A DNA stretch of 64,000 bases, taken from NCBI GenBank assembly GCA_033439255.1, contig CM065882.1:2480001-2544000 (forward strand), written 5' to 3'. This document shows, one piece after another, positions 4,265 through 51,014 of this stretch. The notes under the pieces were generated by a model. The model saw nothing but the letters and a program-made list of their open reading frames with translations. It had not been told where the DNA came from and made no database searches. The position numbers and the translations under genes are program-made. Origin of the DNA: Hericium rajendrae (lineage: Eukaryota > Basidiomycota > Agaricomycetes > Russulales > Hericiaceae). The stretch's first letter is position 1; each line of letters begins with the position of its first letter.

Positions 4265-4844
4265 CATCAGCAAAAGTGCAAAGCTAGGATTTGGCCTTGC
4301 GGCGCCTGGCGGCGGATGGCCGGGATCGGCGGTCCGGGTGGCACAAGATCTACGCTGACGTGAACATGTATGACATCAGTCATTGTCCTAAGACTCGTAT
4401 CTGGCCTCCTCAAGGTCGAGGTCTCGCATATATGGATCTCAGCGAAATGGCGAGAACATATAAGCTCCTTTCCATTATTGATGCCAGCTTGTATTGTCGT
4501 GCCCGTCCTCGATGGCAGCAGATATGACATGGTGAGTTTATAACTACAATGGTGCAAAGCCTGCTTCTTCTAGCAGTTCTTCGTCAGTGTCCACGCCCCA
4601 CTTCCTAGCATACCCGACTCGTCCGTCATTGTGTATCAAGAGACGGTCACCAGTCTAAGCAGCCTCGGCAAGCCAAATTGACCCTTCAGACCTGATCGCA
4701 AGAGGTGCGATGCGCAACGAGGTGCGTACTGAAAATCATCTTGATTTCTGCTCTGCCTCAACCTGCTGTGCCCGAGAAGCAGAGCTATGCACGTCGTGCA
4801 CGGGCTCGCTGGCTGCCCGAGGCCTCACCCACTCCCCCCGTGCA

Positions 4845-5345
4845 CTGCCAGCTCCTCCCGCGTCTCGCGTACGCCGCCAACATCCTCCCCGCACGTCGCC
4901 AACACCCCCGTGCCCCGCCAACGCCCCCAGCACCCCATCAACGCTTTCCTTGCGGATGGTGCCAGCGCCTCGCGGACGTCCGACGCCCCCCGCTCCTCGT
5001 TGACCCTCCCGCGCCCCGCCAACGTCCTTCACGCCTCGCTGACGCATCCCCCAATGCACCCCGCGCGGCGCCAACGCCGTCAGCGCCCCGCATCCGCCGC
5101 CAGCGCCTCGCGCAGGCCACCAGTGCCCCACTTACGCTGCCAGTGCCCCGTGTACGCCCCGCCAACCCGCACACGCCCCGCACACGCCGCCCCACCGCGC
5201 TGACGACGCGCCCAACGCGCTGCGCTAACAACGCGCCGCACCGCCGTGTCGACGCGTCCAATGCGCGGCACCGCCCCAGCGCCGCCACGCCGACGACGCA
5301 CCCAACGCGTCGCACCGCCCCAGACGTGCTCCTCAACACACTCTT
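4845..5345 (+). repeat. GC-rich minisatellite inside the transposon
   Basis: Degenerate tandem units of roughly 24 bp built on CGCCAACGC and GCGCCCCGC run for about 500 bp. They create long spurious Arg/Ala/Pro frames on both strands. The same block in copy 2 lies at about 48940-49440. The block sits just upstream of the 5404-5688 frame and has probably replaced part of a gene. Confidence 0.65.
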
Positions 5346-5403
5346 GGAGCTCCGTGCCTCGCCGCCGTGACCAGTACGAACCTCTCGCGCACTGTGAGCG
5401 TAG

Positions 5404-5688
5404 AGTCCGGAACTTCCGCTTGCCATCTGCCTGCTCAAGTACTGCCTCCTGTACTCACAGCATGCGGATAAGCAGGCTACGGAACGTGTGCTCGAGCGCA
5501 TGGCGGGCATCGTGTGTGCGCCAACCGCGAAGCCCGTTGCGCCCGGACTACTGACAGGCGGATGGCATGCGCGCGTGCTGACACACGCGGTCGACGCGGT
5601 CATTGTGCGGTCTGTGCTGCTGACCGAAGGCGAACAGTACGAGGACCCGGGCGCAGCAGGAGTCAATGCCAACGGACGCGAGCAGTAA
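5404..5688 (+). pseudogene. Gene remnant or 3' exon inside the transposon
   Basis: This open frame follows a stop codon at 5401 and reads 94 codons of ordinary-looking protein, including LKYCLLYSQHADKQ and ERMAGIVCAP, ending in NANGREQ. It has no upstream start except inside the minisatellite, so it looks like the 3' end of a second transposon gene whose 5' part was lost or replaced by the repeats. The same frame is present in copy 2. I recognise no family. Confidence 0.35.
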
Positions 5689-5930
5689 TACCTGTACTCA
5701 AGCTATGTTCCGGACGGAATAGCTCCTCCGTCGGCTCGATGTAACGTACAAAAATTCGTAAACTGGAAGATATACATGTGAACTAAAATATAGCGAAGAG
5801 AAACCCCAGTTTGCACCATAAAATTATGTTGACGGTGGGCTGAGAATTGAAACGGTCATGTGACCTCGACGCGACTTGGGCTTTCGAATCTTGTCCCGTC
5901 CTCCTGCATCCTCTCTTGCTTCCCACCACT

Positions 5931-7372
5931 ATGTCCAAGCATCGCTCTCATCGTCGCTCCCACTCCTCTTCCCCTTCCCGCTCTCGCTCCCCTCGTCTTG
6001 CTCGATCTGCTAAACACAAGAAGTCAGGCAAGAGACACAGGATGTCACAGCCGGCACCGGAAGTGCCTCGGAAACGCACTCACGACGAATCGGACAGCGC
6101 GTCTGATGAAAGTGACAGCGAGCGCCCATCTAACTAGCAAAGGCATGTTTTCTCCTTCTCATCCTGCAGATTGCTGAGATACCAATCATCTCGAAGGAGC
6201 CTTAACGACGCAAAGACGATTACCCTCTATCGTCTAGCCGGTCGAGAGATAGGACGGATCATCGATCCCTTCTTGGACATCAAACAGCTCTTTATGTTCT
6301 ATGCTGCACTTGCCAATGCTAACACACCCGAGTCTCGGGCTGCACTGGCCGACAACATATATGGCAAGCTCAAGTAAGTGTAACGTCTCCTTTCTGCATT
6401 GATCACAGCATATATGCGGCTAATTTTGTAGGGATGAGCATGCAAAGCATGCATATATGACCTTCTACGAGAAGGTCGTTGGCATGGTGAAGGGCTTTCG
6501 CGACATCGTGGATGGTGGCGAGCAAAACACAGCCCTCATAAACGAGCTGCTAGAGGCGGTAAGTGAATACCCGCATATATGCACTTTTACTATGATCTAA
6601 GGTCGCATTGATGGTCTTCAAGCTTTCAGCAGGGATGTATGCTGTCCAATGCGATGACAGAAGCTACTTGAAGACGGAGATCAGCGACTACATCTTTATC
6701 CCCTTTCAAGAACCGATACAGAAGCATTCGAAGATGGGCCGTGGCCTCAACCGTGTCGATATAAAACGACTGCTTTGTCCCGTTCGGTATCTGCGCAAGT
6801 TGGATAGTGAACCTGAAGGGTATGTTCTGATGTTTACTACTGGTTAGGTCTGACCTTGCTTGCACAGTTATCGTCAGAAATTTATCCAAGGACAAAAGAA
6901 GATGCTCAAAAGCAAGACACAGACTCGGAAGACGAAGACGAGGATAGAGGTGGTCCACGTATGTTCTCAACTTCTGTTAGACTTGTCTTCTGAAACCATT
7001 TGCAGCTCGAATCCGGCGCTCAAGCCCTCGCGCGGTCACTGTCCCGTCCAGCCCACTCACACAGCCGTCAAATACGATTCCGACCGTGCTGTTCCTGTCG
7101 CCAAGAAGCGACGTTTGGCTGTCGCTCCGGGACCTCAGATGACAGCACGGTCTGCTGCTGTCGCACAAGGCAATGCCAGTGCGAAAGCGACCGAACCAAG
7201 ACCGCCTCAAACTGCGCGCGACCTCTTCAACAGCCCTGAGCCGGAGCCCGTCAGCAGCGCTTCTGCCGGAGTATCCAGCAAAAAGCCTATGAAGCAATAC
7301 GGCAAGGCTAAGGCTAAGGCTCCGCAGGTGCCTGTTCTGAACGGCATACGACCTGCCAGTCTGCTCGGGTGA
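5931..7372 (+). CDS. DUF6698-like protein, transposon copy 1
   Basis: The ATG at 5931 opens an SR-like N-terminus (HRSHRRSHSSSPSRSRSPR) followed by an acidic Ser/Asp stretch. Later exons encode a globular part: a helix around LYRLAGREIGRIIDPFLDI, then FYEKVVGMVKGFRDIVDGG, then YLKTEISDYIF, and RGLNRVDIKRLLCPVRYL. These match my memory of DUF6698, an uncharacterised family in many copies in Agaricomycetes whose members carry GFKDIL, the I-DYI motif and RLLCP. Clear introns end at about 6430, 6600, 6867 and 7005. A last exon carries a nuclear localisation-like KKRR. The first junction (about 6110-6175) and the stretch near 6896 are ambiguous in frame. Its place alone in a TIR element suggests a role in, or a ride on, transposition; that is inference. 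Confidence 0.65.
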
Positions 7373-7997
7373 AATGAGATCTGTACGTCCATATTTACTA
7401 GTGATACCTTCATTAATATTTTTGGTAGTGTTCGCGCACTATGGTGCCCTTCCTCAATGGTTCTCTTGCTAGTCTTTGTGCTATCATTCCTCTTGCTGCT
7501 GGACTTGGTCCTGCTTGTTCTCGTCAACCTCCGGTACTCAGTCTCATGGTCTTGCTCGTCTTACGCTGTTGCTCGTCTCATGCTCGTCTTGCTCGTCTCG
7601 TGCTCTTAGTCATGCCGATTTTTCGTTTTCGACTCGTACTTATGTGTCCCTAATTTCATTGACCTGTACTCGGCCACATGTACCTCTTCCTTCTCGCCTC
7701 ATGTAATGACTGACCCATTGATGTTTTCGGTATACGAATATATTGGGGTTTCGGATCTCACCATAGCATCGCGACTAAGTGTGATATCTGTAGATCGTTG
7801 ACTACCAGGTCAAGCGTACATCTCAGAGATTATACTCCATTAGAAAGTAAGATAAGGTCAAGTGTACAAATCGGGCCTTATACACTACGAAAAGTCATTA
7901 TAAGGCTGTCGTGCCTTGCGAGACCTTATAAGGTCCACCAGGTGCCATAAGGCGTTGTCGTGCCACCGTACCTCGCCAGAAAGCCCAACCACGATAT
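7373..7997. other. Transposon 3' non-coding region
   Basis: Pyrimidine-rich and later AT-rich sequence lies between the DUF6698-like stop codon and the hAT-like insert. It includes degenerate CTCGTCT repeats near 7550-7600. The last eight bases, CACGATAT at 7990-7997, are the target duplication of the nested insert. Confidence 0.5.
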
Positions 7998-10081
7998 GTG
8001 GAGGTCGGCAACTGCGGTTCGCAAACCGTCCGGGTCACGTGCCCGATCTGGCTGGAGAACATCAGCAAAAGTGTGAAAAATCTGTAAGGGCTTACAAGGA
8101 TATGTAAGGATTTACAAAGGTTACAATCGCTGCCGTCCGGTAAGGATGCCACATTTCGTCGCAAGGCTATACACGGGTACCTTAAGGATTTGCCATCGTC
8201 CCCATCCTTCGCAAGGCTTGCCAGCCCTGCCAAGGGTTACCTGGCGGGTTGGACTTCTCCATCGACATGGTACACGTGCAATGCCATATGGTCATTGTAA
8301 AGTGACACAAGGAGTGCTACAGCATTTAGATATTTTTATTTATTTATTTTCATCCTTGGCAGAGATAGTGACAGAGATAAAATCGAATACATTTTTCGCA
8401 GTTACGAACCTGTCTTAGATACATAGAAGCTATCTACGAGACACATCTGTAACTAAGCAACAACCATCTCTATGCGCACTGATGCGCCGTCGTACAATCA
8501 GTCAGCTGAAAATGGGATAGATCCCGAGCGATCCAGAAGCCAGAGGCGAGCGTTGCGCCCGTCGCGAGATATCCCGCCAGAGAATGTCTTCGAGGAGTCC
8601 CAGAAAGCAACACTTGATGGAAAGCACCACGAACGATTGAGAGTCCAGCCAATAGAAGGCCAACACAAGAAGACGCCAGCCTAGAGAATCCGGAGGGAAT
8701 AAACAGGCGCGACGACGATCCTTCGGAAAGCTTGAATAGCTGATATGCTTGCAAGAGGAGGGATTGGACGAAGACTGCGTACAACCGCGAAGGCTAGATA
8801 TCATGAAACGAATGAGATTTAGGGCCGGCCGCGACGCACCTTGGAGAAACGTCGTAGCGTTGCTATGGCGTCTCGAAAATATCGAGACGTGTACCTGTAT
8901 TTCGCGAGGGGTACGGCAGGCAGGCGAAGTAACTGCAAATGCGTCAAAAACCTGTCATCTAGACTGAAAGCCATTAGAGACCAGATCGGAGATTTTGAAA
9001 ACTCACCATCACGATGTCAAATTTTCAAGTTGTCGACAACCTTTTGTGAGGTATGTATTGCCCTTGTATACCCTTGTAGTGCCTTACATACCGGCGCCAT
9101 CTCGGTGGCGCGTGACAAACGTCACCGGGGAATAACAGAGTAAAACGTTTTTGCTGATGAAGAGGCGCGGAAAGTGGTCGCGGAGCACAATGCAGTTATC
9201 TGCATGTAGAAAAACCCGATAATGTTTGAAACAAATGTGGTAGTGTACTATACATGATATGATGCTGTATCCGAAGTTTTGACACATGAATCGAAGAACT
9301 AATGGAGGTAGAAAGTGGTAAAGTTAGCCCTCCTCCTCACTAACTGAAGAGTCCCCCCCTTCGGAGATTCTTTATGTATTAACCAGTCCCTAATCATAGA
9401 GAATCATTGTATCATAAAGCCCACTTATTCGTGCTGTATCTAGACCCTGCAAGATTGTGATCAGACCTGCTCGAAGGTGATCCTTCTTCCCGTTTGAGAG
9501 ACTTGGCGGCACAGTTACCAGCTGCTTCCGCGACAGCGCGCGAAGCCATGAAATCTGAGCCTTGATCTACACAAGTGCAGGGCTTCGAGCGATAAGTAGC
9601 GGAAGTCAAGCGGAAGTTGTGGTATATAATGCAGCGACGCGACGCGCTGAGCTCTCCGCAGACGCGTCTGATGCGTATTACATAACACGCATTTTGGTGA
9701 TGCCGAGTGATGCCGAGCGCTCCCGGTCTTGAGACAGGATGTACATGGATAAAATCACCTAGACCTCCAAAAACGAAGATTGGTTGACCATACGTCGTCT
9801 AAAATCGGGAAGAGCGAGGTTGTCATCGTGTTTTTCGCATACGGCTTCTGGAAGGTATCGAAACCCACGAAAATTAGACATTTTGAGCGCATTAAAGCTG
9901 CGCATCTCAAAATAAGGATCAGCGCCGAACTCTACTCGATTTTACAAGATTTACTATGTATGTCTACTAATATTTGAGGCTCTTGCGGAAGCTCTGCATT
10001 TACCTACCACCTCCCTTCGACGAAAAGCCTGAAGTGGCGCGGACGGCTTCGGAGTTTAAATCCCTATGCGTTGCCTACCAC
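7998..10081 (+). mobile_element. hAT-like non-autonomous element, long copy, nested in transposon copy 1
   Basis: The element runs from GTGGAGGTCGGCAAC to GTTGCCTACCAC, imperfect inverted ends sharing GTGG and GGCAAC. It is flanked by the 8-bp direct repeat CACGATAT (7990-7997 and 10082-10089). The other transposon copy has a single CACGATAT at this place (46288-46295, opposite strand), which is the unfilled site. An 8-bp duplication with short inverted ends fits the hAT superfamily. No hAT transposase frame is present, so the element is non-autonomous. Positions 8057 to about 9160 are missing from the shorter relative at 49447-50428. Confidence 0.85.
8470..8784 (-). pseudogene. Possible captured membrane-protein fragment inside the hAT-like element
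   Basis: A 104-codon minus-strand frame has alternating hydrophobic stretches (SSCVGLLLAGLSIV, LAGYLATGATLASGFWIA) that look like two membrane segments. It has neither its own promoter nor a matching downstream exon. It lies in the part deleted from the short relative, so it is not needed for mobility. It may be a host gene fragment picked up by the element. I cannot name the source gene. Confidence 0.3.
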
Positions 10082-10187
10082 CACGATATGATCTGATAAT
10101 TCGCACTTCTACCCGGTGAGCCTTGTGACCATCTGGCCCATATATGGTCACCTATTTCCATGTCGCACTCTTGCAGTTTTGCTGATG

Positions 10188-10495
10188 CGAGAATGCTCTT
10201 CTTCTGCATCGCGCAGCGGCATCATAACACGACACGCAGAGTCATTTACGTCCCAGGCCTCTATCGATCTCCAGAAGTCCTGTCAAGAGTCCCGCACGAG
10301 TCCACATAGTCGACTTGCTCGCATTCTCGCATCGGGCCGCGTTCTATCCCCAACACGCTCAGATCTGCCCTAACACCGCACTTCGAAGCCCGTCCTACCT
10401 CCACTCGGAAGCGCGAAGATGCCATTGGGCTGCATCTCATCTATCGATACTTCATCCGACAACATAAATATACGCCGCAGAGGTCATCCTCTGCG
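10188..10495. other. Intergenic, no gene recognised
   Basis: This is flanking host DNA between the right end of the transposon and the stop codon of the hydrolase gene. Nothing else is seen. Confidence 0.5.
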
Positions 10496-11444
10496 TCATG
10501 GCTCATAATCAAGAAAGTCACCGACGATCTGGACAAACCGCTCGCGTTCCTCCCACATCGGCGTGTGGCTCGACTTCTCGAACGTCACCCACTTCACCCT
10601 TGGTATGTGACGGAAGAACGGCTCGCAGACGAAGTCCTGCGCGATGTCATCGCGGCCGTTGATGACGAGCACGGGCACGCGGATCTCATGAAGGCGGTCG
10701 ATGATGCTCCACTCCCGCAGCGGGCCCGCGAACCTGTACGTTTCGTTTAGCCTCCCTTGGAAGGACTACACCAACGAAAGCGCACATCGCGATCCCGACG
10801 GTCGGATCGCCGTCCTTCCCAAAGACCGCATCCAGCGCACGGATATACTCCTCCGGCGGCGGCTTCAGCGTGCACCCATGCTTCGCATGGAACCGGAGCA
10901 GCGCCGCATGGTACCGCTCCCGGTCCGCAAAGCCCACCATCAAGCCCCGCCGCACCTCCTCCGAGAACGGCGCCACCAGCCGCGCCGTCGCGCGATTCCA
11001 CAGGTCCGTCGCGGGCAACGAGTCCGCGAGCACGAGATGCCGCAGCCCCGCCGGCCGCCGGCGCACCGCGAACTCCGCGCCAAGGACGCCGCCCCAGGAG
11101 TGCCCGACGAGGTCGAACGCGTCCTCGATGCGGAGCACGCGCAGGAGGTTCGCGAGCTCGGCGACGAAGAGGGCGATGGTCCAGAAGGATGCGGGCTTGG
11201 CGCGCAGGTGCGTGGAGCGCCCGTTGCCGAGCTGGTCGTAAAAGACTACGGGGATGCCATGCGTGTGCGCGAGGTCGGCGAGGGGGATCATGTAGTCGTG
11301 GATGAGCCCGGGACCGCCGTGCAGCACGACGAGGGGCCGATGCGTGTGCGGGTGGAGGGCGCCGACGAGCTTGTACCATGTGTGGTAGGTCTCGCCGCCA
11401 ACTTCGAATGGAATTGTGCCTTCTGTGATATTTGGAGTAGCCAT
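10496..11444 (-). CDS. Proline iminopeptidase-like alpha/beta hydrolase
   Basis: Exon 1 runs from the ATG at 11444 to 10786, followed by a 52-bp intron (10734-10785, GTGCGC donor, branch CTAAAC) and exon 2 to 10496, giving 298 residues. The alpha/beta-hydrolase S33 signature is complete: oxyanion-hole HGGPG at 42-46, nucleophile elbow GHSWGG with Ser116, the acidic residue in NGRDD and the catalytic His in SSHTPMWEE near the C-terminus. Family members cleave N-terminal proline from peptides or act as general amidases or esterases; many fungal relatives sit near metabolic genes. There is no signal peptide, so it is probably cytosolic. The length fits the family, and the substrate cannot be told from the sequence. 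Confidence 0.88.
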
Positions 11445-15363: not shown

Positions 15364-16184
15364 CAAGTTATTATGTTTCTGTATGTAGTACCCGTTGTGG
15401 TGCTTGAGTTTTGCGAGATACCGACCTTCTGATGTATCAGGATATTGCGCAGTATCCCAGATGGTTGCTGTTGTCGATTTCCTTCTGCAAAACGAAGTCG
15501 AGCGCTTGCAGCGACACGGAAAGGTTTGAATTTTACGAGGGCTGGCCATTCTCCTGTCTGGTGCCTTCAGTGCGCGACACTATCTAAAATTCCAGCATAT
15601 CCTTCTTCGTGGCAGTTCAAGTCCGGCTATCGTGTGATTCTCCATCCCGATCCACCATAAGAAGAGTTCACAAGCTGCAGTTTCCAAGCAACTGTCTGTT
15701 CGGCCTCGTTGACGTCCGCATTGGGGCGTAAGCAGTCCCGGGCGATCGACGGAATCCCCGATGTGCCCATCCTCATTCCTTCCGTTTACCATTCAACAAC
15801 TTCCTGTCGTCAAGTGCTGCCAAGTCGGTGTCATATTCTTCTGCTCGTCCATATACACAACTTGCATTAAAACAAGAGACTGCTTTTCGGTCCTGCATTC
15901 TGGTTGCTTTGTTCAAGGAGTTTTTCTTTTTTTTTTTCCTTGGGCCCATAAAACATAAGTTGCCGCACAGCGAATGCGATTCAATAATGTACGGCGGTCT
16001 GCAGCACCCCTCGCAAATGCGACGTGCTCTGATGTGCTCTCGACGGCCAGGCGCCAAACCCGGAAAGGTCTCAGTTGTTTGTCTATAGCGGTCAAGCTGA
16101 TTTGCAAGACCTTGTTCTTCCATCAGTCAGCTCACCGACGATGCAAGTTGAGTAGCATGGTCCCCAAGTGCCTTTCTTCGCGAG
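15364..16184. other. Intergenic, no gene recognised
   Basis: The stretch holds the 3' region of the Sld7-like gene and upstream sequence of the SDR pseudogene. A T-rich tract lies at about 15921-15938. Short frames carry no motif. Confidence 0.45.
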
Positions 16185-16192
16185 TATATAAG
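16185..16192 (+). promoter_or_regulatory. TATA box of the SDR pseudogene
   Basis: TATATAAG lies 79 bp before the ATG at 16271. The following leader (GGAAAATTCATCAACATACC) is nearly the same as that of the intact paralogue at 45173, showing that the promoter was duplicated with the gene. Confidence 0.6.
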
Positions 16193-16270
16193 AGCAGCTG
16201 TGACGCCAGGAAAATTCATCAACATACCCATAGCAGCTCATAGCCTCCGTTCTCATTTCATCACCGCACA

Positions 16271-38201: not shown

Positions 38202-39477
38202 TCACAATTTCGCTTGCAACTCGGGCACAACATCTTTGCCCTTCCCTACCGTCAAATAGTCCCTGATATTTGACAGAGCACGAACTTCCATCTTGCGCTG
38301 TGAGTCTTGCGTCTCGGTACCCATATGCGGCAGCAGCGTCGCCTGCGGGAACTCGAGCAGGCGCGGGTTGACCGCGGGCTCGTCGGGGTAGACGTCTAGT
38401 CCGATGGCACCCAGCTACCGGGGTCGATGCATGAGCAAATAAAAGATGTGCGCAGTTTGGAAGAAGACTTACATGACCATCTTCCAACGCACGAATCAGC
38501 GCCGCCTCATCAATCACCTTCCCCCGCGCGGTATTCACAATAATTGCGCCCTTCTTCAGCTTCCGGATCATCCCCTTCCCAACGAATCCTTCCGTATCTT
38601 TCCGCAACGGCACATGCACGCTCAGCACATCCGCCGCGCCCAAGAATTCGTCCAATTTCCCGGTAGGGAAGTACTCGGCCCACTCCGGCGCGTGCTCATT
38701 GCGTCGGCGCGAGTGGTAGATGATGCGCATCGGGAATGCGCGCGCGAGCTCTGCGAGGCGCAGCCCGATGCCGCCGAGGCCGAGAATGGCGAGCGTCTTG
38801 CCCGTTAGGTCATGCGTCAGCGATGAGGAAAGGCCTGATTTCCACGCGCCGGCGCGCAGATTGCGCTCGGCACGCGCAAATTGGCGGAAGGCAGAGATCA
38901 TGAGGTAGAGCGCGGTGGTGGCCGTCGCGTCGTCGACCGCGCCAGGTGTGTTGGAAACGATGATGCCTGTGAGGCAGGTGATGATCAGACAATTTTGAAA
39001 CACATCACGCCTAAGGGCGCAATTGGGAGACAGTAAAGAGCAAAGACGGTATTTACCCTTCTCCTTGCAGGCTATGACGTCGATCTGGTCATATCCTGCG
39101 CCGTTGTGCGCGATCCACTTTACGCTTGGCGCAAGTGCCTCAATAATCGCGCGATCAAATATGCCGATCCTGTCCGTAGACGAGTTGTGACGGTAGATTG
39201 CGATGGCACCTTCGTATTTTCCGCCTGATTTCAGATTCGCGAGGAAGTCGGCGCGATCGGGCGAGTCCATACGCTATAGAGGCCATGGATAAAATTGCCG
39301 GAGAATATAAGCCAACGAGATGGATTCCTACCACGACCTCTGCGAGACCGTCAAAGAGCTCTTTGACCTCGTCGTGTGCCCACACGATGTCGCCTATATC
39401 GTACGCGATCAGTCTCCCCGACATACGAATTATCGTCTGCCGGAAAACTCACCGCAAATCATGATACGAGGCGCCAT
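38202..39477 (-). CDS. D-isomer-specific 2-hydroxyacid dehydrogenase (glyoxylate/hydroxypyruvate reductase-like)
   Basis: Five exons (25, 62, 217, 494 and 213 nt) from the ATG at 39477 to the stop at 38202 give 336 residues. The first two exons (MAPRIMICG; DIVWAHDEVKELFDGLAEVV) were found by splicing upstream of the obvious ATG at 39270 and match the paralogue at 54403. The NAD(P)-binding motif GLGGIGLRLAELARAF, the catalytic Arg in NTARGKVIDEAA, the acidic residue in LDVYPDEPAVNP and the catalytic His in LLPHMGTET are all present. Such enzymes reduce glyoxylate, hydroxypyruvate or related 2-keto acids. The reading frame is clean, so this is probably the working copy of the pair. Confidence 0.9.
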
Positions 39478-40348: not shown

Positions 40349-40441
40349 AGAGCTGATAGCATTTGTCCTTCCTTGTCGACAGAGTCCTAGGCATCCTCTG
40401 CCCTTCGACACCTATTCTTTGTCCTTCGCTACCCTTTGGCT

Positions 40442-42111
40442 ATGGCTGACAGTCAGCTCCCTCGTCATCAGTCCCTCCCTCCCATCACGGCACTCGACAA
40501 TCTGTCAACACCACCCCCGACACTTTCCTTCAGTGCCCAACACCCAGAGATGTGGGAACCAGTGCCGAGCCCACCTGCCCCTCCTCCCGTCGAGCTGACC
40601 GAGCACCGAGCACCTGCGCTGGCCGAGCACCGAGCACTTGCGGTGACTGAGCGCCGAGTACCTGCGCAGGAGGCTACTTCCGTTGAGGCCGCTGAGGCGC
40701 TAGCACTGTCGAAGGTCCGCAGTGGCTTCACGGCCAACGAGCTGCTCACACTGGCTCGAACTGCGCTGGAGATCAATGTGTACACAGCGAAGCATGGGGA
40801 GAAGAAGAAGAAGTGGGCGGAGCTTGGGGGTAGACTGCGCCAAGAGGGGATGGTCCACTCAGATGCGGTGTTTCAGAGGAAAGTTGAGGATCTGCTTGTT
40901 TGGCAGGATGTAGGTCACATTTCATCTGAGTTATTTTGATGCAGATGCTGACTTGTTTTTCGCAGAACCCGGCGCGTGCGACTCTCACAGCGCAAGCTTT
41001 GCTTAAGCCTGAATCTGCCAGTATTCCCATTGCGGCCGTTCTTGATCGCTTGAGTCAGTCGAAGGCTGATGCGCTAGCGCGCACCGATGCAGAACAAGCA
41101 CGAGCAGTAAAGGTAAATACCTGTTTATGGGTGATATCACGAAGCTCATGATCATGACAGAAGTACAACGATGATCAGAGAGGAGGTCAGGCAATACGCG
41201 ATGCTGCTCTGCGTGCAAGCCGCGGCACAGTCTCTGGTCCCCTTTCCACTGCCCATCCCCCCGCTCTCGAGTCCGCGTCTGCAGCCCAGGTCAAGTGCGA
41301 GACCGTCAAGCGCGAGTCTCTCGACACGCGCGCTATCATGCGTGAGCCTCTCGATGCACGCGCTGTCAAGCACGGACCCCCTGCTGTCACCACCATCAAG
41401 CGCGAGTCCCTCGACATGAGCACTGTCAAGCGCGAGTCTCTCGACACGAGCGCTGTCAAGCGTGAATCTCTCGACACGAGCGCTATCAAGCGGGAGCCTA
41501 CTGCCATCGCTGCTATCAAGCGGGAGCCTCTCGCCTTCAGTCCCATCAAGCATGCTTCTCCCGCGCCTCTTGTCAAGATGGAGTCGACTGAGCTGCGCCT
41601 TCCGAGCTCTGATATCGAGCTCATTGATTCCAAGCCGGCTGACTTCATCGAGCTTGACTCAGACGGTGAAGTCATTGGGGGCCTGGGCAACATCACTACC
41701 TTCGTCACTGGCACCCCTCGCTCTGTTACCCACCCTGTAACCCCCCACTCTGTTGCCAGCATCACTACTCCCCGTACCGTTGCGCAGAAGGAGAATACCG
41801 TACCCGGTGCTTCCAGGAGGCGCACTGCGATCAAGCACCGTGCGGAGGAGAGCGATAGCGAGGATGAATCAAAGCCCGGCCCCAGTCGCAAGAGCAAGCA
41901 CCAGCGCAAGAGCACCAGCCTTTCGCCGTTGGCCGATATGCAGGCCTTCATGGAGCGCGAGTCACGGGAGCGGCGTGCACATGAGGCTCGTATGATGGCG
42001 CTCACAGAAGCCACGATTGAGCGTGGCAAAGTTGAGGCGGCTGAGCAGTCCCAGTTCCATGCTAACTTCCTAGGGCTTTTCCAAAAGCGCTTCTCTGCGG
42101 AGCGCAACTGA
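40442..42111 (+). CDS. Harbinger partner protein with SUMO-consensus array
   Basis: Three exons (40442-40909, 40966-41112, 41161-42111; introns 56 and 48 bp) give 521 residues. A Pro-rich N-terminus is followed by a helical region (ANELLTLARTALEINVYTA; KKKKWAELGGRLRQEG) that may be the Myb/SANT-like DNA-binding part expected in the second Harbinger gene. Residues about 249-347 form a repeat with VKRES or IKREP every ten residues; Lys250, 255, 285, 295, 305, 315, 325 and 344 each fit the SUMO acceptor consensus (hydrophobic-K-x-E). Then come DIELID and DFIELDSDGE, resembling SUMO-interacting motifs, and a C-terminal helix with MERESRERRAHEARMMAL. The SUMO link is inference. Confidence 0.82.
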
Positions 42112-42314
42112 AGTGCCGTCTCTGTTTCTTCCTTATAATTTTACTAATGTGGTCATATATTTCGGTATCATCATCTTCGTACTAAATCCACTGCTACCTT
42201 TCTTATAGTACTTTCCTTGCGCTAGCTCGGAGATCCTTTTATCTTTCTTATAGTCTCCTTTATAACCACTTAACTAGGTTGTCGAAATTAAGAAAAATTG
42301 TGGCTTTATATCTA
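42112..42314. other. Tail-to-tail spacer inside the Harbinger element
   Basis: AT-rich 3' regions of the two element genes, with several TATAATTT-like stretches. No gene is present. Confidence 0.5.
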
Positions 42315-43596
42315 CTAATCATGAAAGTACTCGAAGAGTCCAGGTGGATGACAATCAAAGTATTGTGCTACTTGGTTAGGGCGAAGGCAGTTCAGTGCAT
42401 TAGTCAAAAGAACACCAATGCGATAATATCTCCCAACTGGCGAAGAGTAAAGCTGCATCTTCCAAGCAGCGTTAAGGAACGGCCAGTTGTTTACCACGAT
42501 CCCAAATGCATGCTCGACCTCGATCCGAACTGCTGCCATCCGTGTGTTCCATTCCTGCTGCTCTTCCGTAATGTGAGCATGAGCATATGGGCTCATTATA
42601 TGAGGGCCGATGCCATATGCTGGGTCACCAAAAACCTGGAAGTACCGATCCTCGATTGGTGTATTCTCGTCCGTCCCCTCCTGTATCGCATGGACCGCAC
42701 AGACTTCCATGAGATGACTTGCATTGAGCAAGTGAGCATCGTTCCGACGGCCTTCCACAGGACCGAACAAATGACCGAACATCCCGTTAGGAAGGACGAC
42801 GGCTTGGAACTTGAGGGCGTGGATCTTCTTGTGACCATTGTAGGCTTGACGCTGGAACTCGGATGGTCGACATATCCGCCGAATAGTGCAATCGACAAAT
42901 CCAAACACGGAAGATGATGGAGCACCACGTTGGTGGATGGCAAGGGAATAGATGGCAAGTTTGGTGGGGTGAAGGAGGAAATCATGGTCAAAATCCAGGA
43001 GATGGCCCCAGCGATCATCAAGATACTGGACAAGTTCATTGACACAACGTGAAATCGAAGATTGGGAACGATCATATAGCATGGTAAGGTTGTACTGATC
43101 TGCAGCTGTGCGAAAGCGTGCAAGAAGCAGACAAAGTGCCTCGACCCGAGGAAAATTGTAGCGACCTTCCACTTTGAATTCTTCTGGGATGTCAAGAGCC
43201 TCAGCAACTTCAAATATCTCATTTGCAGTCATACTGTAGAAGTACGATTAGATCCATAGATAGCAGAAGACATGAATCGTACCGAAAGCGCCATACACAA
43301 TCAGCAGATGAAAGCGAACGAAGCCAATCCTCTGTGATCCTCTGACCACCTTGTGCTGGACGTGGCTGTTGTGTGCTCATCTCTCCGAAATCTACTGTGC
43401 TCAAGAGTTCTGCAGCTGATGTCGCATGAAATGACATAGCACCGGCTACACCTTGCAGCTTCTGAAGCGCCGAGATAGCTGCCGTGGGGCGGGGAGGTTG
43501 TAGAAAGAGTGGGGCTGTTAGGAGAAGGAAATCTCGGAGCTCCGGATCTTCTTGCATCCAGGCTTCGAGCTGCTCATTGTCCTGAAGTCCGTCCAT
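42315..43596 (-). CDS. Harbinger transposase (HARBI1-like, DDE_Tnp_4)
   Basis: Two exons (43596-43283 and 43233-42315, one 49-bp intron) give 410 residues. The N-terminal quarter is acidic and helical; a helix-turn-helix-like part follows (ALCLLLARFRTAADQY; DRSQSSISRCVNELV). The catalytic domain shows Asp219 in GFVDCT, GPVEGRRNDAHLL, Asp308 in FGDPAY and Glu345 in RIEVEHAFG, giving the Asp-Asp-36-Glu spacing of Harbinger enzymes. All three acidic residues are intact and there is no internal stop. In this family the transposase needs the partner protein for DNA binding and nuclear entry, and the partner gene is present. Confidence 0.92.
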
Positions 43597-43803
43597 GGCG
43601 TTGACAGCGTCAATGACTACTTCCGATTCTTACAGGAATATCGCCGTCGAAAACAACAACCGGTGTTTCCCGAGGTTTCAAACTCCGCTTCAATCTTAGG
43701 TCCGCCCACTTTTTACTTATGCGGTAGTCAGTTATCACTTAGATCACGCAATTCTATGCGCTGCAAATACGCTCTATTCCAATGACATGCAATACCCGCG
43801 GGC

Positions 43804-45173
43804 TCACGGAGGAGAGACTCCCAGCCTCTTCTCCCTAGCGACGATATCATCGATAGTGTCGTTCAACGTTGTCTTCCAGTCCCTGAACTTGCTGAACCCG
43901 ATGATCCTCTCGGAACTGCTCACATCGTAATGGTTCCATTCCTCGACGCTCGCCTTGTAGCCCTCCGGGATTATGGGCAGCCGGTCCCTCAGCTCAGGGC
44001 GCGCCTCATAGAGGTACTCGACTGCCTGCTTCCACAGGAACTCGCCGCCGACGTTCACGATGCGCTTCGGCTTGTCGGACTTTGGGGCCTTCAACGCGAG
44101 AACATGCGCGGCCGCTGAGTCTGCGACATGCACGTAGCCGGGCGAGCTCGCCTGGGGTTCAAGCGATCTGCCCTTGGGCCCGTTGATCAAAGCGTAAACC
44201 AACGCGTTCGTGCCGTCTGCGGGCACGTCGATGACCTGTCCCCGACCGGTAGGGCCGAATATGTAGCCGGGATGGACTAAGAAAGAGACTCGTCAGCAAC
44301 AGAGACGTCATCTCGGTGGCAGGCTACGAACCTGTGGCGACGTCCAGCTCGGGATGCTCTTTCGCATAGCTCCAGAGCGCCTCCTCGGCCAGCTTCTTGG
44401 ATGCGGAGTAAACGAACATCGGCGGGTAGTCCGGTTGCAGGGCGTCTTCGAGCGTCTGTGTGTTCCAGTCTAGGTTACGAAGTGAGTCGACTGTGCCCTT
44501 TGACAGAAAATATAAAACTGACCATTCTCCGTGAACGTCTTGCCGGACTGGGACTCCGCTGGGTGGCCCAGAGAGGCGACGCTGGCAGTAACGACTACGT
44601 TCTTGATGCCTGCCTTGCGGGCATAGTCCACAGCCCTGATAGTGCCGTCAACAGCGCTCTGGGGGCAAGGCAATCAATATCTGGAGTGCAATCTAGACAG
44701 GAAGTGGCTCACCTTGATGATGACCTCAGCAGAGGCAGCTCCGGGGAGCGGGGAGGCCGTGTGAATCAAAGCATCCGCGCCTAGGATGGGATGGACATCA
44801 GGGCATTGTCGTTCGAACGCTGGTCTGACTTACCCTTGAACGCTTCAGTGAAGTCGGCTGTTGCGAGATCATCGATGATAGCAACACTAAATTTGTTTCC
44901 AAACGAGGCGTAGGCGTCCTTCACGCGTTGGGCTTTGCCGGAGCGAACGGTGCTGTATAGACGGAGGTCAAACGTCGGTTAGAACAAGGCAGGTATGCAG
45001 CATACCCGCGAACGGTGTAGCCGGCTTCGAGGAGCTGATCAACGACAACGGAGCCCAGGAATCCAGAGGCCCCAGTAACCTATGCCATAGCGAAAACCGT
45101 CGAAATATCGTCAATACCTCTATACAGCGAAAAAAGGCGAAGGACGTACGACAACGGTCTTAATGTTTGACAT
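43804..45173 (-). CDS. Extended SDR, cinnamoyl-CoA/methylglyoxal reductase-like
   Basis: Seven exons: 45173-45150, 45079-45006, 44952-44834, 44780-44713, 44658-44523, 44469-44332 and 44276-43804, coding for 343 residues. The Rossmann motif VTGASGFLGSVVVDQLL and the active-site YSASKKLAEEAL (Tyr and Lys) are intact; DALIHTASPLPG and HPGYIFGP are further family marks. Such enzymes reduce aldehydes or ketones with NADPH; plant relatives are cinnamoyl-CoA and dihydroflavonol reductases, yeast relatives are Gre2 and Grp2. Promoter and leader match the pseudogene at 16271, so the two are duplicates in opposite orientation. The Harbinger element inserted just past its stop codon and may affect its 3' UTR. 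Confidence 0.92.
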
Positions 45174-45255
45174 TGTGCAGTGATGAAAAGAGCTCGAGAA
45201 TGAGGTGTGTAAACGCTGTGGGTATGTTGATGAGTTTTCCTGACATCATACCTAC

Positions 45256-45263
45256 TTTTTATA
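45256..45263 (-). promoter_or_regulatory. TATA box of the intact SDR gene
   Basis: TATAAAAA on the minus strand lies about 83 bp before the ATG at 45173, at the same place as in the pseudogene copy. Confidence 0.65.
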
Positions 45264-45617
45264 CCACAGGCCGGCAAGGTATCGGAAGACCATGCTGCCT
45301 GTGCTCGAGTCGTCGGGGAGCTGACTGATCAAGGATCGATGCCTCGTCATCCTACCTAACCGCTGGGCATTGTCAGCTTCCTACTGCCTTCGATTGACGC
45401 TCTGATGCCAGTTAACATCATGGCCAAATTCGATTGCAAAGCAGTTTGACGTGCTGCTCTGGTCTAAAAGATGTGTTCATCTTTGGAGTAGACAGACAAT
45501 TAAAACTTTCGGAGTCTAGCTACCGTGGACATCCTCAAAACTTTCACCACACGTCGCGGTGGTGAGATTGCTGGACGTGCGGCAAAGCATGGATTGTTGC
45601 TAAAAACGTTACTCTTA
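45264..45617. other. Intergenic upstream of the SDR gene
   Basis: No gene is recognised. The stretch ends at the 28-bp inverted repeat. Confidence 0.45.
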
Positions 45618-45978
45618 CAGCTGGATTCAAAACGATAGACCAGGACGCGTGCGCCCAGCTTCGGAGCTGGTGGGGCTCCCGATCAGATCTCCTGCGAGCC
45701 AAAGCTTGCGAAATGTATCCCTCGCAGGGAACTCTGTCCTTCTGGGCCGCGTAGCGACGTGCATTTCAGTCTGTTCAGCCTCGGTGATTTTTTCGTCGAT
45801 TTTGGGCTGATTGTCAACCTCCCACACCAACTTCAGCATCGCTGGTTGGTATAACGAAGAGGGAGTCTGGTGGAGTCGGCTTGCTTCGACCCCGCCGACC
45901 TGCCTCAAAAGGCCATCTTCGGAGCAGGTTCCGTAAGCGTGGAACGGGCGCTTTGGTCTATCGTTTTGAATCCAGCTG
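45618..45978. mobile_element. Possible small TIR element (TA-flanked)
   Basis: A 28-bp perfect inverted repeat (45615-45642 and 45954-45981) encloses about 310 bp. If the element starts at CAGCTGGATTC and ends GAATCCAGCTG, it is flanked by TA on both sides, the duplication of Tc1/mariner elements. A minus-strand frame across it (about 140 codons) has no motif. It could equally be a simple hairpin remnant. Confidence 0.45.
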
Positions 45979-46912
45979 TAAGCAGAGTGACGAGAAACCA
46001 GGGTTGGAAGGCAGTCCAATGTCTTAATGCAACTTGTATCAGTATGGACAGGCATTGACAAGCAGGAGAATTTGACGCTGACGTGGCCGCGCCGAAGCGC
46101 TGACGAATGGAAGTTGAGTGGAAACTATCCGTAGAACCAGTTGGGACACGTGTGCACCATCGACACGCGCGGGACGAAGGGCGCCTCGGCATCAGCAAAA
46201 CTGCAAGAGTGCGACATGGAAATAGGTGACCATATATGGGCCAGATGGTCACAAGGCTCACCGGGTAGAAGTGCGAATTATCAGATCATATCGTGGTTGG
46301 GCTTTCTGGCGAGGTACGGTGGCACGACAACGCCTTATGGCACCTGGTGGACCTTATAAGGTCTCGCAAGGCACGACAGCCTTATAATGACTTTTCGTAG
46401 TGTATAAGGCCCGATTTGTACACTTGACCTTATCTTACTTTCTAATGGAGTATAATCTCTGAGATGTACGCTTGACCTGGTAGTCAACGATCTACAGATA
46501 TCACACTTAGTCGCGATGCTATGGTGAGATCCGAAACCCCAATATATTCGTATACCGAAAACATCAATGGGTCAGTCATTACATGAGGCGAGAAGGAAGA
46601 GGTACATGTGGCCGAGTACAGGTCAATGAAATTAGGGACACATAAGTACGAGTCGAAAACGAAAAATCGGCATGACTAAGAGCACGAGACGAGCAAGACG
46701 AGCATGAGACGAGCAACAGCGTAAGACGAGCAAGACCATGAGACTGAGTACCGGAGGTTGACGAGAACAAGCAGGACCAAGTCCAGCAGCAAGAGGAATG
46801 ATAGCACAAAGACTAGCAAGAGAACCATTGAGGAAGGGCACCATAGTGCGCGAACACTACCAAAAATATTAATGAAGGTATCACTAGTAAATATGGACGT
46901 ACAGATCTCATT

Positions 46913-48353
46913 TCACCCGAGCAGACTGGCAGGTCGTATGCCGTTCAGAACAGGCACCTGCGGAGCCTTAGCCTTAGCCTTGCCGTATTGCTTCATAGGC
47001 TTTTTGCTGGATACTCCGGCAGAAGCGCTGCTGACGGGCTCCGGCTCAGGGCTGTTGAAGAGGTCGCGCGCAGTTTGAGGCGGTCTTGGTTCGGTCGCTT
47101 TCGCACTGGCATTGCCTTGTGCGACAGCAGCAGACCGTGCTGTCATCTGAGGTCCCGGAGCGACAGCCAAACGTCGCTTCTTGGCGACAGGAACAGCACG
47201 GTCGGAATGCGTATTTGACGGCTGTGTGAGTGGGCTGGACGGGACAGTGACCGCGCGAGGGCTTGAGCGCCGGATTCGAGCTGCAAATGGTTTCAGAAGA
47301 CAAGTCTAACAGAAGTTGAGAACATACGTGGACCACCTCTATCCTCGTCTTCGTCTTCCGAGTCTGTGTCTTGCTTTTGAGCATCTTCTTTTGTCCTTGG
47401 ATAAATCTGACGATAACTGTGCAAGCAAGGTCAGACCTAACCAGTAGTAAACATCAGAACATACCCTTCAGGTTCACTATCCAACTTGCGCAGATACCGA
47501 ACGGGACAAAGCAGTCGTTTTATATCGACACGGTTGAGGCCACGGCCCATCTTCGAATGCTTCTGTATCGGTTCTTGAAAGGGGATAAAGATGTAGTCGC
47601 TGATCTCCGTCTTCAAGTAGCTTCTGTCATCGCATTGGACAGCATACATCCCTGCTGAAAGCTTGAAGACCATCAATGCGACCTTAGATCATAGTAAAAG
47701 TGCATATATGCGGGTATTCACTTACCGCCTCTAGCAGCTCGTTTATGAGGGCTGTGTTTTGCTCGCCACCATCCACGATGTCGCGAAAGCCCTTCACCAT
47801 GCCAACGACCTTCTCGTAGAAGGTCATATATGCATGCTTTGCATGCTCATCCCTACAAAATTAGCCGCATATATGCTGTGATCAATGCAGAAAGGAGACG
47901 TTACACTTACTTGAGCTTGCCATATATGTTGTCGGCCAGTGCAGCCCGAGACTCGGGTGTGTTAGCATTGGCAAGTGCAGCATAGAACATAAAGAGCTGT
48001 TTGATGTCCAAGAAGGGATCGATGATCCGTCCTATCTCTCGACCGGCTAGACGATAGAGGGTAATCGTCTTTGCGTCGTTAAGGCTCCTTCGAGATGATT
48101 GGTATCTCAGCAATCTGCAGGATGAGAAGGAGAAAACATGCCTTTGCTAGTTAGATGGGCGCTCGCTGTCACTTTCATCAGACGCGCTGTCCGATTCGTC
48201 GTGAGTGCGTTTCCGAGGCACTTCCGGTGCCGGCTGTGACATCCTGTGTCTCTTGCCTGACTTCTTGTGTTTAGCAGATCGAGCAAGACGAGGGGAGCGA
48301 GAGCGGGAAGGGGAAGAGGAGTGGGAGCGACGATGAGAGCGATGCTTGGACAT
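46913..48353 (-). CDS. DUF6698-like protein, transposon copy 2
   Basis: The gene mirrors 5931-7372 of copy 1, with the ATG at 48353 and the same SR-like N-terminus, GFRDIVDGG, EISDYIF and RLLCPVRYL segments. Long middle frames are identical to copy 1. In the last exon an extra base near 47210 (ACGCATTCC instead of ACGATTCC) shifts the frame before the KKRR stretch, so either this copy has an altered tail or one of the two reads is wrong. As in copy 1 the junction near the end of the first exon is unclear. Function is unknown; see copy 1 for the family argument. Confidence 0.62.
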
Positions 48354-48595
48354 AGTGGTGGGAAGCAAGAGAGGATGCAGGAGGACGGGACAAGATTCGA
48401 AAGCCCAAGTCGCGTCGAGGTCACATGACCGTTTCAATTCTCAGCCCACCGTCAACATAATTTTATGGTGCAAACTGGGGTTTCTCTTCGCTATATTTTA
48501 GTTCACATGTATATCTTCCAGTTTACGAATTTTTGTACGTTACATCGAGCCGACGGAGGAGCTATTCCGTCCGGAACATAGCTTGAGTACAGGTA

Positions 48596-48880
48596 TTACT
48601 GCTCGCGTCCGTTGGCATTGACTCCTGCTGCGCCCGGGTCCTCGTACTGTTCGCCTTCGGTCAGCAGCACAGACCGCACAATGACCGCGTCGACCGCGTG
48701 TGTCAGCACGCGCGCATGCCATCCGCCTGTCAGTAGTCCGGGCGCAACGGGCTTCGCGGTTGGCGCACACACGATGCCCGCCATGCGCTCGAGCACACGT
48801 TCCGTAGCCTGCTTATCCGCATGCTGTGAGTACAGGAGGCAGTACTTGAGCAGGCAGATGGCAAGCGGAAGTTCCGGACT
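48596..48880 (-). pseudogene. Gene remnant in transposon copy 2
   Basis: The counterpart of the 5404-5688 frame (LKYCLLYSQHADKQ, ERMAGIVCAP), again headed by the minisatellite instead of a start codon. Its conservation in both copies only reflects their recent common origin. Confidence 0.35.
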
Positions 48881-48939
48881 CTACGCTCACAGTGCGCGAG
48901 AGGTTCGTACTGGTCACGGCGGCGAGGCACGGAGCTCCA

Positions 48940-49438
48940 AGAGTGTGTTGAGGAGCACGTCTGGGGCGGTGCGACGCGTTGGGTGCGTCGTCGGCGTGGC
49001 GGCGCTGGGGCGGTGCCGCGCATTGGACGCGTCGACACGGCGGTGCGGCGCGTTGTTAGCGCAGCGCGTTGGGCGCGTCGTCAGCGCGGTGGGGCGGCGT
49101 GTGCGGGGCGTGTGCGGGTTGGCGGGGCGTACACGGGGCACTGGCAGCGTAAGTGGGGCACTGGTGGCCTGCGCGAGGCGCTGGCGGCGGATGCGGGGCG
49201 CTGACGGCGTTGGCGCCGCGCGGGGTGCATTGGGGGATGCGTCAGCGAGGCGTGAAGGACGTTGGCGGGGCGCGGGAGGGTCAACGAGGAGCGGGGGGCG
49301 TCGGACGTCCGCGAGGCGCTGGCACCATCCGCAAGGCGTGGAAAGCGTTGATGGGGTGCTGGGGGCGTTGGCGGGGCACGGGGGTGTTGGCGACGTGCGG
49401 GGAGGATGTTGGCGGCGTACGCGAGACGCGGGAGGAGC
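48940..49438 (-). repeat. GC-rich minisatellite, copy 2
   Basis: The same degenerate repeat block as at 4845-5345. It is interrupted at 49439 by the hAT-like insert and carries small length differences from copy 1 (for example near 49335). Confidence 0.6.
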
Positions 49439-49446
49439 TGGCAGTG

Positions 49447-50428
49447 GTGGTAGGCAACGCATAGGGATTTAAACTCCGAAGCCGTCCGCGCCACTTCAGG
49501 CTTTTCGTCGAAGGGAGGTGGTAGGTAAATGCAGAGCTTCCGCAAGAGCCTCAAATATTAGTATACATACACAGTAAATCTTGTAAAATCGAGTAGAGTT
49601 CGGCGCTGATCCTTATTTTGAAATGCGCAGCTTTAATGCGCTCAAAATGTCTAATTTTCGTGGGTTTCGATACCTTCCAGAAGCTGTATGCGAAAAACAC
49701 AATGACAACTTCGCTCTTCCCGATTTTAGACGACGTATGGTCAACCAATCTTCGTTTTTGGAGGTCTAGGTGATTTTATCCATGTACATCCTGTCTCAAG
49801 ACCGGGAGCGCTCGGCATCACTCGGCATCACCAAAACGCGTGTTATGTAATACGCATCAGACGCGTCTGCGGAGAGCTCAGCGCGTCGCGTCGCTGCATT
49901 ATATACCACAACTTCCGCTTGACTTCCGTTACTTATCGCTCGAAGCCCTACACTTGTGTAGATCAAGGCGCAGCTTTCGTGGCTTCGCGCGCTGTCGCAG
50001 AAGCAGCTGGTAACTGTGCCGCCAAGTCTCTCAAACGGGAAGAAGGATCACCTTCGAGCAGGTCTAATCACAATCTTGCAGGGTCTAGATACAGCACGAA
50101 TAAGTGGGCTATATGATACAATGGTTCTCTATGATTAGGGACCAGTTAATACATAAAAAATCTCAGAAGGGGGGGACTCTTCAGTTAGTGAGGAGGAGGG
50201 CTAACTTTACCACTCTCTACCTTCATTAGTTCTTCGATTCATGTGTTAAAACTTCGGATACAACATCATATAATGTATAGTACACTACCACATTTGTTTC
50301 AAACATTATCAGGTTTTTCTACATGCAGAAAACTGCATCGTGCTCTGCGACCACTTTCCGCGCCTCTTCTCCAGCCAGATCGGGCACGTGACCCGGACGG
50401 TTTGCGAACCGCAGTTGCCGACCTCCAC
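49447..50428 (-). mobile_element. hAT-like non-autonomous element, short copy, nested in transposon copy 2
   Basis: This 982-bp element has the same ends as 7998-10081 (GTGGTAGGCAAC and GTGGAGGTCGGCAAC) and is flanked by the 8-bp direct repeat TGGCAGTG (49439-49446 and 50429-50436). Copy 1 has a single CACTGCCA at the matching place (about 4845-4852), the unfilled site. Relative to the long copy it lacks about 1.1 kb (8057-9160). Its small frame at 49919-50116 differs from the long copy at seven of 65 codons, far more than the host transposons differ, so the two inserts came from separate sources. Confidence 0.85.
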
Positions 50429-50436
50429 TGGCAGTG

Positions 50437-51014
50437 CACGGGGGGAGTGGGTGAGGCCTCGGGCAGCCAGCGAGCCCGTGCACGACGTGCATAGCTCTGC
50501 TTCTCGGGCACAGCAGGTTGAGGCAGAGCAGAAATCAAGATGATTTTCAGTACGCACCTCGTTGCGCATCGCACCTCTTGCGATCAGGTCTGAAGGGTCA
50601 ATTTGGCTTGCCGAGGCTGCTTAGACTGGTGACCGTCTCTTGATACACAATGACGGACGAGTCGGGTATGCTAGGAAGTGGGGCGTGGACACTGACGAAG
50701 AACTGCTAGAAGAAGCAGGCTTTGCACCATTGTAGTTATAAACTCACCATGTCATATCTGCTGCCATCGAGGACGGGCACGACAATACAAGCTGGCATCA
50801 ATAATGGAAAGGAGCTTATATGTTCTCGCCATTTCGCTGAGATCCATATATGCGAGACCTCGACCTTGAGGAGGCCAGATACGAGTCTTAGGACAATGAC
50901 TGATGTCATACATGTTCACGTCAGCGTAGATCTTGTGCCACCCGGACCGCCGATCCCGGCCATCCGCCGCCAGGCGCCGCAAGGCCAAATCCTAGCTTTG
51001 CACTTTTGCTGATG
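50437..51014 (-). other. Left part of transposon copy 2
   Basis: Sequence matching 4265-4845 of copy 1 in inverse orientation, identical over a 96-codon frame. No gene is recognised in either copy. Confidence 0.5.

What the first reader, a model, noticed from the sequence alone, without database searches (positions are those of the whole stretch)
4265..51014. A DUF6698-like gene rides in a 3.83 kb TIR transposon, present as an inverted pair
Two elements (4265-10187 plus, 46190-51014 minus) share exact ends (CATCAGCAAAA), nearly identical interiors and equal net sizes (3,831 and 3,835 bp), with different candidate 2-bp flank repeats (CG and GG). Neither encodes a recognisable transposase; the only clear gene is DUF6698-like, a family with many copies and no known function in Agaricomycetes. 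Either DUF6698 is a cargo or accessory gene mobilised in trans, or it is part of an unknown transposition system. This could explain why the family is so expanded.
Basis: partly seen in the sequence, partly recalled or inferred. Interest (0 to 1): 0.82.

Follow-up and report, generated by a model that had tools for sequence, protein, structure and literature searches.

The report
Mushroom jumping gene carrying DUF6698 gene
Two nearly identical mobile DNA elements without a recognisable transposase carry a gene of unknown function, and their ends match a recently described fungal transposon group (PlavakaB), so they are most likely moved by an enzyme made elsewhere in the genome.

Summary
Copies A (4265-10187, +) and B (46190-51014, -) share ends and 3,831/3,835-bp cores differing by three indels and no substitution. 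Each has a 2-bp target duplication (CG, GG) and unrelated flanks. A third, 1,100-bp element with the same ends (8060-9159, duplication AA) lies inside A; B holds its empty site. The protein is DUF6698 (PF20414, E=2.4e-07), but only profile positions 3-70 of 206 match. Pfam found no transposase in 95 of 112 copy-A ORFs and no Plavaka in 342 of 343 outside ORFs.

The transposition system is not unknown: Kojima 2025 gives CATCA..TGATG termini and 2-3 bp duplications for PlavakaB. I read A and B as non-autonomous elements with PlavakaB-type ends, mobilised in trans, carrying a partial-domain DUF6698 gene, frameshifted in A and open over exons 2-6 in B.

Whether DUF6698 is passenger or helper, and whether transposons explain the family's expansion, could not be tested: no genome was held. 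"DUF6698", "PF20414" and "IPR046521" occur in no paper of the library.

The parts
4265..10187 (+). Copy A of the DUF6698-bearing element (5,923 bp with nested inserts; core 3,831 bp)
46190..51014 (-). Copy B of the DUF6698-bearing element (4,825 bp with nested insert; core 3,835 bp)
4265..4281 (+). left TIR of A, CATCAGCAAAAGTGCAA
10171..10187 (-). right TIR of A, CATCAGCAAAACTGCAA on the minus strand (16 of 17 positions equal to the left TIR)
50998..51014 (-). TIR of B on the 5' side of the gene
46190..46206 (+). TIR of B on the 3' side of the gene
4263..4264 (.). TSD of A, CG (second copy 10188-10189)
46188..46189 (.). TSD of B, GG (second copy 51015-51016)
5931..7372 (+). DUF6698-type gene in A; exons 2-6 about 6170-6373, 6432-6558, 6602-6819, 6868-6958, 7006-7372; frameshifted relative to B in exons 5 and 6; exon 1/2 junction unresolved (in-frame TAG at 6135-6137)
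46913..48353 (-). DUF6698-type gene in B; exons 2-6 about 48114-47911, 47852-47726, 47682-47465, 47416-47328, 47280-46913, open throughout (334 codons); same unresolved exon 1/2 junction
6602..6819 (+). exon 4 (copy A), which carries the main PF20414 match
8060..9159 (+). third element with the same 11-bp ends, 1,100 bp, no Pfam family at E<=0.01 in the ORFs scanned; nested in the 8-bp-TSD element of A; TSD AA
7998..10081 (+). nested element of 982 bp (interrupted by 8060-9159), TSD CACGATAT (7990-7997, 10082-10089)
49447..50428 (-). sister nested element in B, 982 bp, TSD TGGCAGTG (49439-49446, 50429-50436); contains the empty site of the 1,100-bp element

Best explanation
A and B are two recent copies of one non-autonomous cut-and-paste DNA transposon with PlavakaB-type ends (CMCT clade, related to CACTA/EnSpm). 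A Plavaka transposase made by an autonomous element elsewhere in the genome would recognise the CATCA..TGATG termini, and perhaps YAAGG-rich subterminal stretches, excise the element and insert it with a 2-bp target duplication. The element carries a multi-exon gene whose protein holds the first third of a DUF6698 domain between a basic Arg/Ser-rich start and a basic tail. Shown: the ends, TSDs, the empty site of the third element, the lack of a Pfam-recognisable transposase in the ORFs scanned, the DUF6698 match, and near-identity of the cores. Inferred: the identity of the mobilising enzyme and that it acts in trans. Open: whether the gene is a passenger (slightly favoured) or a helper.
For: Six exact CATCAGCAAAA ends against 0.02 expected. 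Three of three elements have 2-bp TSDs. The empty site GGAGAAGAGG in the nested element of B shows the AA duplication. Flanks are unrelated. Cores differ by no substitution in 3.8 kb. The only Pfam family at E<=0.01 in 95 of 112 ORFs of 35 aa or more around copy A is DUF6698 (four chance-level hits at E 0.03-0.07: DDT, Astro_capsid_N, PKS_DH_N, DUF2417). Kojima 2025: PlavakaB has 5'-CATCA..TGATG-3' and 2 or 3 bp TSDs, all TET-bearing Plavaka families are PlavakaB, and CMCT elements mostly end CA..TG with 2-5 bp TSDs. PMC8290104 (passages) classifies non-autonomous elements by terminal motif and TSD; PMC9674265 (passages) describes non-autonomous fungal hAT elements using the transposase of an autonomous relative with matching TIRs. 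YAAGG count per 300 bp: 11 at the left end of the 1,100-bp element and 8 at the right end of the core, against mean 0.94 and maximum 4 in 524 overlapping background windows.
Against: No Plavaka transposase was found in the window ORFs scanned, and no autonomous partner could be sought. Assignment rests on about five terminal bases plus TSD length. PMC8290104 says its non-autonomous elements mostly span under 1,000 bp; these span 3.8 kb. The YAAGG motif was picked after seeing the sequences, and two of the four ends are not unusual (right end of the 1,100-bp element 3, reached by 5% of background windows; core left end 2, reached by 26%). In a fairer test, 5-mers chosen from the 1,100-bp element alone were enriched at the core's right end (1 of 350 background windows as high) but not convincingly at the left (42 of 350), and 6-mers showed nothing. 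Only three elements in one window were available, and empty sites for A and B themselves were not seen.
Confidence: 0.82

Rival explanations
1. DUF6698 is not a passenger but an accessory protein of PlavakaB-type transposons (a subterminal DNA binder or anti-silencing factor, in role like TnpA of Spm, recalled, or the TET/JBP enzymes carried by some PlavakaB families). A and B would be deletion derivatives that kept the helper and lost the transposase.
For: Exons 2-6 are open over 334 codons in B with four introns of 43-58 nt that have GTAAGT or GTATGT donors. The protein is basic: exon 1 pI 11.6, exons 2-6 pI 9.6, with a KKRR stretch. PlavakaB families can carry a second gene. Subterminal YAAGG clusters resemble a binding array.
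Against: Only a third of the domain is present. Copy A is frameshifted and exon 1/2 is unresolved in both copies. The 1,100-bp element with the same ends lacks the gene and still moved, though it could have been helped in trans. No autonomous element with both genes was seen.
Confidence: 0.3
2. A Pack-type capture: the element picked up a fragment of an ordinary host DUF6698 gene with its introns, and the fragment has no role in transposition. (This and the helper reading are alternatives within the best explanation.)
For: Truncated domain; no resolved exon 1/2 junction; frameshifts in A. Precedent: histone H3 captured and amplified by a hAT transposon in Pseudocercospora (PMC6710886, abstract read).
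Against: The truncated gene has a frame that stays open to a stop and a tail of its own, which a random fragment need not have. A parental host gene was not found, but fungal genomes could not be searched.
Confidence: 0.5
3. The inverted pair is a segmental duplication or an assembly artefact, not two transpositions.
For: Inverted paralogous stretches exist in the same window (16184-18249 with 43814-45264; 38239-39168 with 54708-55630). The two cores differ only by indels, which can be assembly error.
Against: Similarity stops at the TIRs, flanks are unrelated, the TSDs differ and the nested inserts are at different places with different TSDs. The paralogous stretches are only 77-81% identical and, from those coordinates, the two pairs have different centres.
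Confidence: 0.04
4. A new transposition system in which DUF6698 itself is the recombinase.
For: No known transposase domain was found in the element ORFs scanned.
Against: The ends and TSDs match PlavakaB. The protein holds only a third of DUF6698. The 1,100-bp relative moved without the gene on board. Non-autonomous elements are common (recalled).
Confidence: 0.03

Closest known systems
PlavakaB DNA transposons (CMCT clade; Kojima 2025, PMC12730594)
   Same: CATCA..TGATG termini, 2-bp TSDs, and the presence of a second, non-transposase gene in some families
   Different: no transposase recognised in these copies; the carried gene is DUF6698, not TET/JBP
Non-autonomous CACTA/EnSpm derivatives and Pack-CACTA elements of plants (recalled; Pack-CACTA seen only as a term in the listing)
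   Same: short CA..TG TIRs, suggestive subterminal repeats, carried gene, no transposase
   Different: termini are not CACTA; 2-bp rather than 3-bp TSD (recalled for plants); host is a fungus
hAT elements that captured histone H3 in Dothideomycetes (PMC6710886, abstract)
   Same: fungal DNA transposon amplifying a captured gene
   Different: different superfamily and gene; in P. fijiensis all copies but the original were inactivated by RIP
DUF6698 family (PF20414)
   Same: 31.1 bits against a curated cut-off of 23.7
   Different: profile positions 71-206 are not matched; own basic tail

Membership tests
PlavakaB transposon (non-autonomous) | termini 5'-CATCA..TGATG-3' | tested here: met
   all six ends of three elements; definition from PMC12730594 section 3.2.2
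PlavakaB transposon (non-autonomous) | 2 or 3 bp TSD | tested here: met
   CG, GG, AA; AA shown against the empty site
PlavakaB transposon (autonomous) | Plavaka transposase (PF18759; C(2)C and H(3-4)H motifs) | tested here: not met
   Pfam only, motifs not sought apart: no such family among 95 of 112 ORFs of at least 35 aa around copy A, 152 of 152 outside ORFs of at least 110 aa and 190 of 191 of 72-109 aa; that PF18759 is in the library was assumed. Hence only the non-autonomous label is used
PlavakaB transposon (non-autonomous) | an autonomous partner with the same ends in the same genome | not testable with these tools
   no genome held
DUF6698 (PF20414) | score above the curated cut-off | tested here: met
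   31.1 bits against 23.7, E=2.4e-07
DUF6698 (PF20414) | whole domain (206 positions) | tested here: not met
CACTA-like (CMCT) element | repeated subterminal motifs at both ends (recalled) | tested here: inconclusive
   YAAGG 8 at the core's right end but 2 at its left; post hoc motif; fairer test mixed
Pack-type gene capture | a parental host gene elsewhere in the genome | not testable with these tools
   no genome held; no second DUF6698 in the window ORFs scanned
hAT or Zisupton (nested 982-bp elements) | 8-bp TSD | tested here: met
   CACGATAT and TGGCAGTG, each with an empty site in the sister core; 8 bp is the usual hAT and the Zisupton length per passages of PMC12730594
hAT or Zisupton (nested 982-bp elements) | transposase or characteristic terminal sequence | tested here: inconclusive
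   no transposase family in the ORFs scanned; termini not compared with known families

The most novel reading that the evidence does not exclude
DUF6698 proteins are a transposon-borne accessory family: a large, uncharacterised Agaricomycete protein family exists in many copies because PlavakaB-type (CMCT) elements carry it as a helper, for example a subterminal binder or anti-silencing factor, much as some PlavakaB families carry TET/JBP.
Probability: 0.25. Interest if true: 0.7.

Novelty: new variant of a known kind. Interest (0 to 1): 0.42.

Why it matters
If the link is general, a protein family now called 'unknown function' would be recognised as transposon cargo or helper, which would correct gene counts in mushroom genomes and give a second accessory gene for PlavakaB beside TET/JBP. 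The window gives exact ends, TSDs and a near-identical pair, so a genome-wide search is straightforward. If it is not general, this is an ordinary non-autonomous transposon with a captured gene.

Tried and rejected
Segmental duplication: rejected. Tc1/mariner, Harbinger and piggyBac types: rejected, because the TSDs are CG, GG and AA rather than TA, TWA or TTAA (those rules are recalled). The DDE_Tnp_4 gene at 42318-43247 (Harbinger-type by recall) as source: unlikely for the same reason. A second gene upstream in the core (three short peptide candidates): no Pfam match at E<=1. Hidden C-terminal DUF6698 part elsewhere in the window: no hit better than E=2 by tblastn. A profile of two sequences, the comparator and the window's own exon 4/5 part, also picked exon 5 (E=0.001 in B, 0.08 in A), but that is circular. 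Relatives of the protein: none confirmed in viral contigs, prokaryote contigs, plasmids (183-aa part) or PDB; the contig scans reach close relatives only. The left-end 19-mer in viral contigs: none. Other CATCA..TGATG pairs in the window, 100-12,000 bp apart, with 2 or fewer mismatches in 12: 33 pairs listed, 7 with an equal 2-bp flank, of which three are A, B and the 1,100-bp element; the other four were not pursued. Structure of exon 4 alone: mean pLDDT 51.7, single sequence, unusable, so no fold search was run. Exon 1/2 splice site: enumerated, no convincing donor. Papers: 'DUF6698', 'PF20414' and 'IPR046521' (accession recalled) gave 0 papers; the 2014 PNAS paper on KDZ and Plavaka elements (identifier recalled) is not held. 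Listings were seen; of them only PMC12730594, PMC8290104, PMC9674265 and PMC6710886 were opened.
Full report
Observation. The window holds a long inverted pair, A at 4265-10187 and B at 46190-51014. Both begin and end with CATCAGCAAAA, an 11-mer found six times in the window against 0.02 expected. The remaining two occurrences bound a third element, 8060-9159, which lies inside A. The TIR of A is 17 bp with one mismatch.

Mobility. A is flanked by CG, B by GG and the 1,100-bp element by AA; a 2-bp match has probability 0.065 here. The nested element of B is uninterrupted where that of A holds the 1,100-bp element, so it is an empty site and shows the AA duplication. Flanks of A and B (1.5 kb a side) have no blastn similarity. 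Both cores were hit by a 982-bp element with 8-bp duplications, CACGATAT in A and TGGCAGTG in B, at different places, and each core shows the other's empty site. The two 982-bp elements differ at 29 of 982 positions. Order inferred: copies A and B arose, each took an 8-bp-TSD insert, then the insert in A took the 1,100-bp element. That no substitution separates the cores suggests all this is recent, or that the cores were homogenised by gene conversion.

The gene. Exons 2-6 of copy B are open for 334 codons, joined by introns of 58, 43, 48 and 47 nt with GTAAGT or GTATGT donors. Pfam places the protein in DUF6698 (PF20414, E=2.4e-07, 31.1 bits, cut-off 23.7), but only residues 122-188 against profile 3-70 of 206. 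So the gene has a truncated domain followed by a basic tail. Relative to B, copy A has a 2-bp and a 1-bp difference in exons 5 and 6 that shift its frame, and both copies have an in-frame TAG before any convincing first intron. Thus neither copy is shown to make a full protein. The three A/B differences are all indels and could be assembly errors.

No transposase. Of 112 ORFs of 35 aa or more around copy A, 95 were scanned; DUF6698 is the only family at E<=0.01, with four chance-level hits at E 0.03-0.07. Outside the elements, 152 of 152 ORFs of at least 110 aa and 190 of 191 of 72-109 aa were scanned at E<=0.01: families found include GH31, cyclase, D-2-hydroxyacid dehydrogenase, Rer1, RSN1/PHM7, Sel1, ankyrin, weak NACHT/AAA matches and one DDE_Tnp_4 transposase, but no Plavaka and no DUF6698. 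I assume PF18759 is in the library; I did not test that it is.

Identity. Kojima 2025 (PMC12730594; [quoted passage not shown] The ends and TSDs here fit. Because no transposase was recognised, I label them non-autonomous with PlavakaB-type ends, as others classify such elements by TIR and TSD (PMC8290104, passages). Against this, that paper's non-autonomous elements mostly span under 1,000 bp.

Subterminal signals. YAAGG occurs 11 times in the first 300 bp of the 1,100-bp element and 8 times in the last 300 bp of the core, against a background mean of 0.94 and maximum of 4 in 524 overlapping windows; the other two ends have 3 and 2, which is not unusual. The motif was chosen after looking. 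Choosing 5-mers from the 1,100-bp element alone gives 1 of 350 background windows as high as the core's right end, but 42 of 350 for the left end, and 6-mers give no signal. This is suggestive only.

Mechanism. Most likely a Plavaka transposase from an autonomous element elsewhere acts in trans on these ends. The gene is either a captured passenger (0.5) or an accessory factor (0.3). The 1,100-bp element, which lacks the gene, shows that the gene need not be on the moving DNA; it does not show that the protein is unnecessary. The truncation and damage lean towards passenger.

Limits. No genome was held for the window, and the collections that could be scanned here are viral, prokaryotic or plasmid by their descriptions. 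They gave nothing, nor did PDB sequences, as expected for a fungal sequence. In the open-licence library no paper contains DUF6698, PF20414 or IPR046521, so I found no printed link between DUF6698 and transposons; that is a statement about those searches only.

Noticed in passing
7998-10081 and 49447-50428: 982-bp elements with 8-bp TSDs and imperfect GTGG.. ends (hAT- or Zisupton-like), 29 differences in 982 positions, one inside each DUF6698 element at different places.
   Followed up: partly
8060-8360 and 8860-9159: The left end of the 1,100-bp element carries YAAGG at 10-bp steps (offsets 25, 35, 45 from the end) and its right end at 73, 83, 93, one helical turn apart, as in a protein-binding array.
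   Followed up: partly
4840-5380: GC-rich degenerate repeats (units such as CCCCGCACCCCGCCAACGC) make up part of the element's 5' non-coding region and give long ORFs on both strands without Pfam match at E<=0.01.
   Followed up: no
42318-43247 (-): DDE_Tnp_4 transposase ORF (Harbinger-type by recall), E=1.5e-19; its ends were not sought.
   Followed up: no
38239-39168 / 54708-55630 and 16184-18249 / 43814-45264: Two pairs of diverged inverted paralogous stretches (77-81% identical); the first pair is D-2-hydroxyacid dehydrogenase, the second has no Pfam match in the two ORFs tested.
   Followed up: partly
41305-41551: Tandem repeat of 30 bp (and 120 bp) inside a 317-aa ORF without Pfam match.
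   Followed up: no
4265-10187 against 46190-51014: All three differences between the cores are indels and none is a substitution, unusual for natural divergence; possible assembly errors, two of them in the coding region.
   Followed up: no
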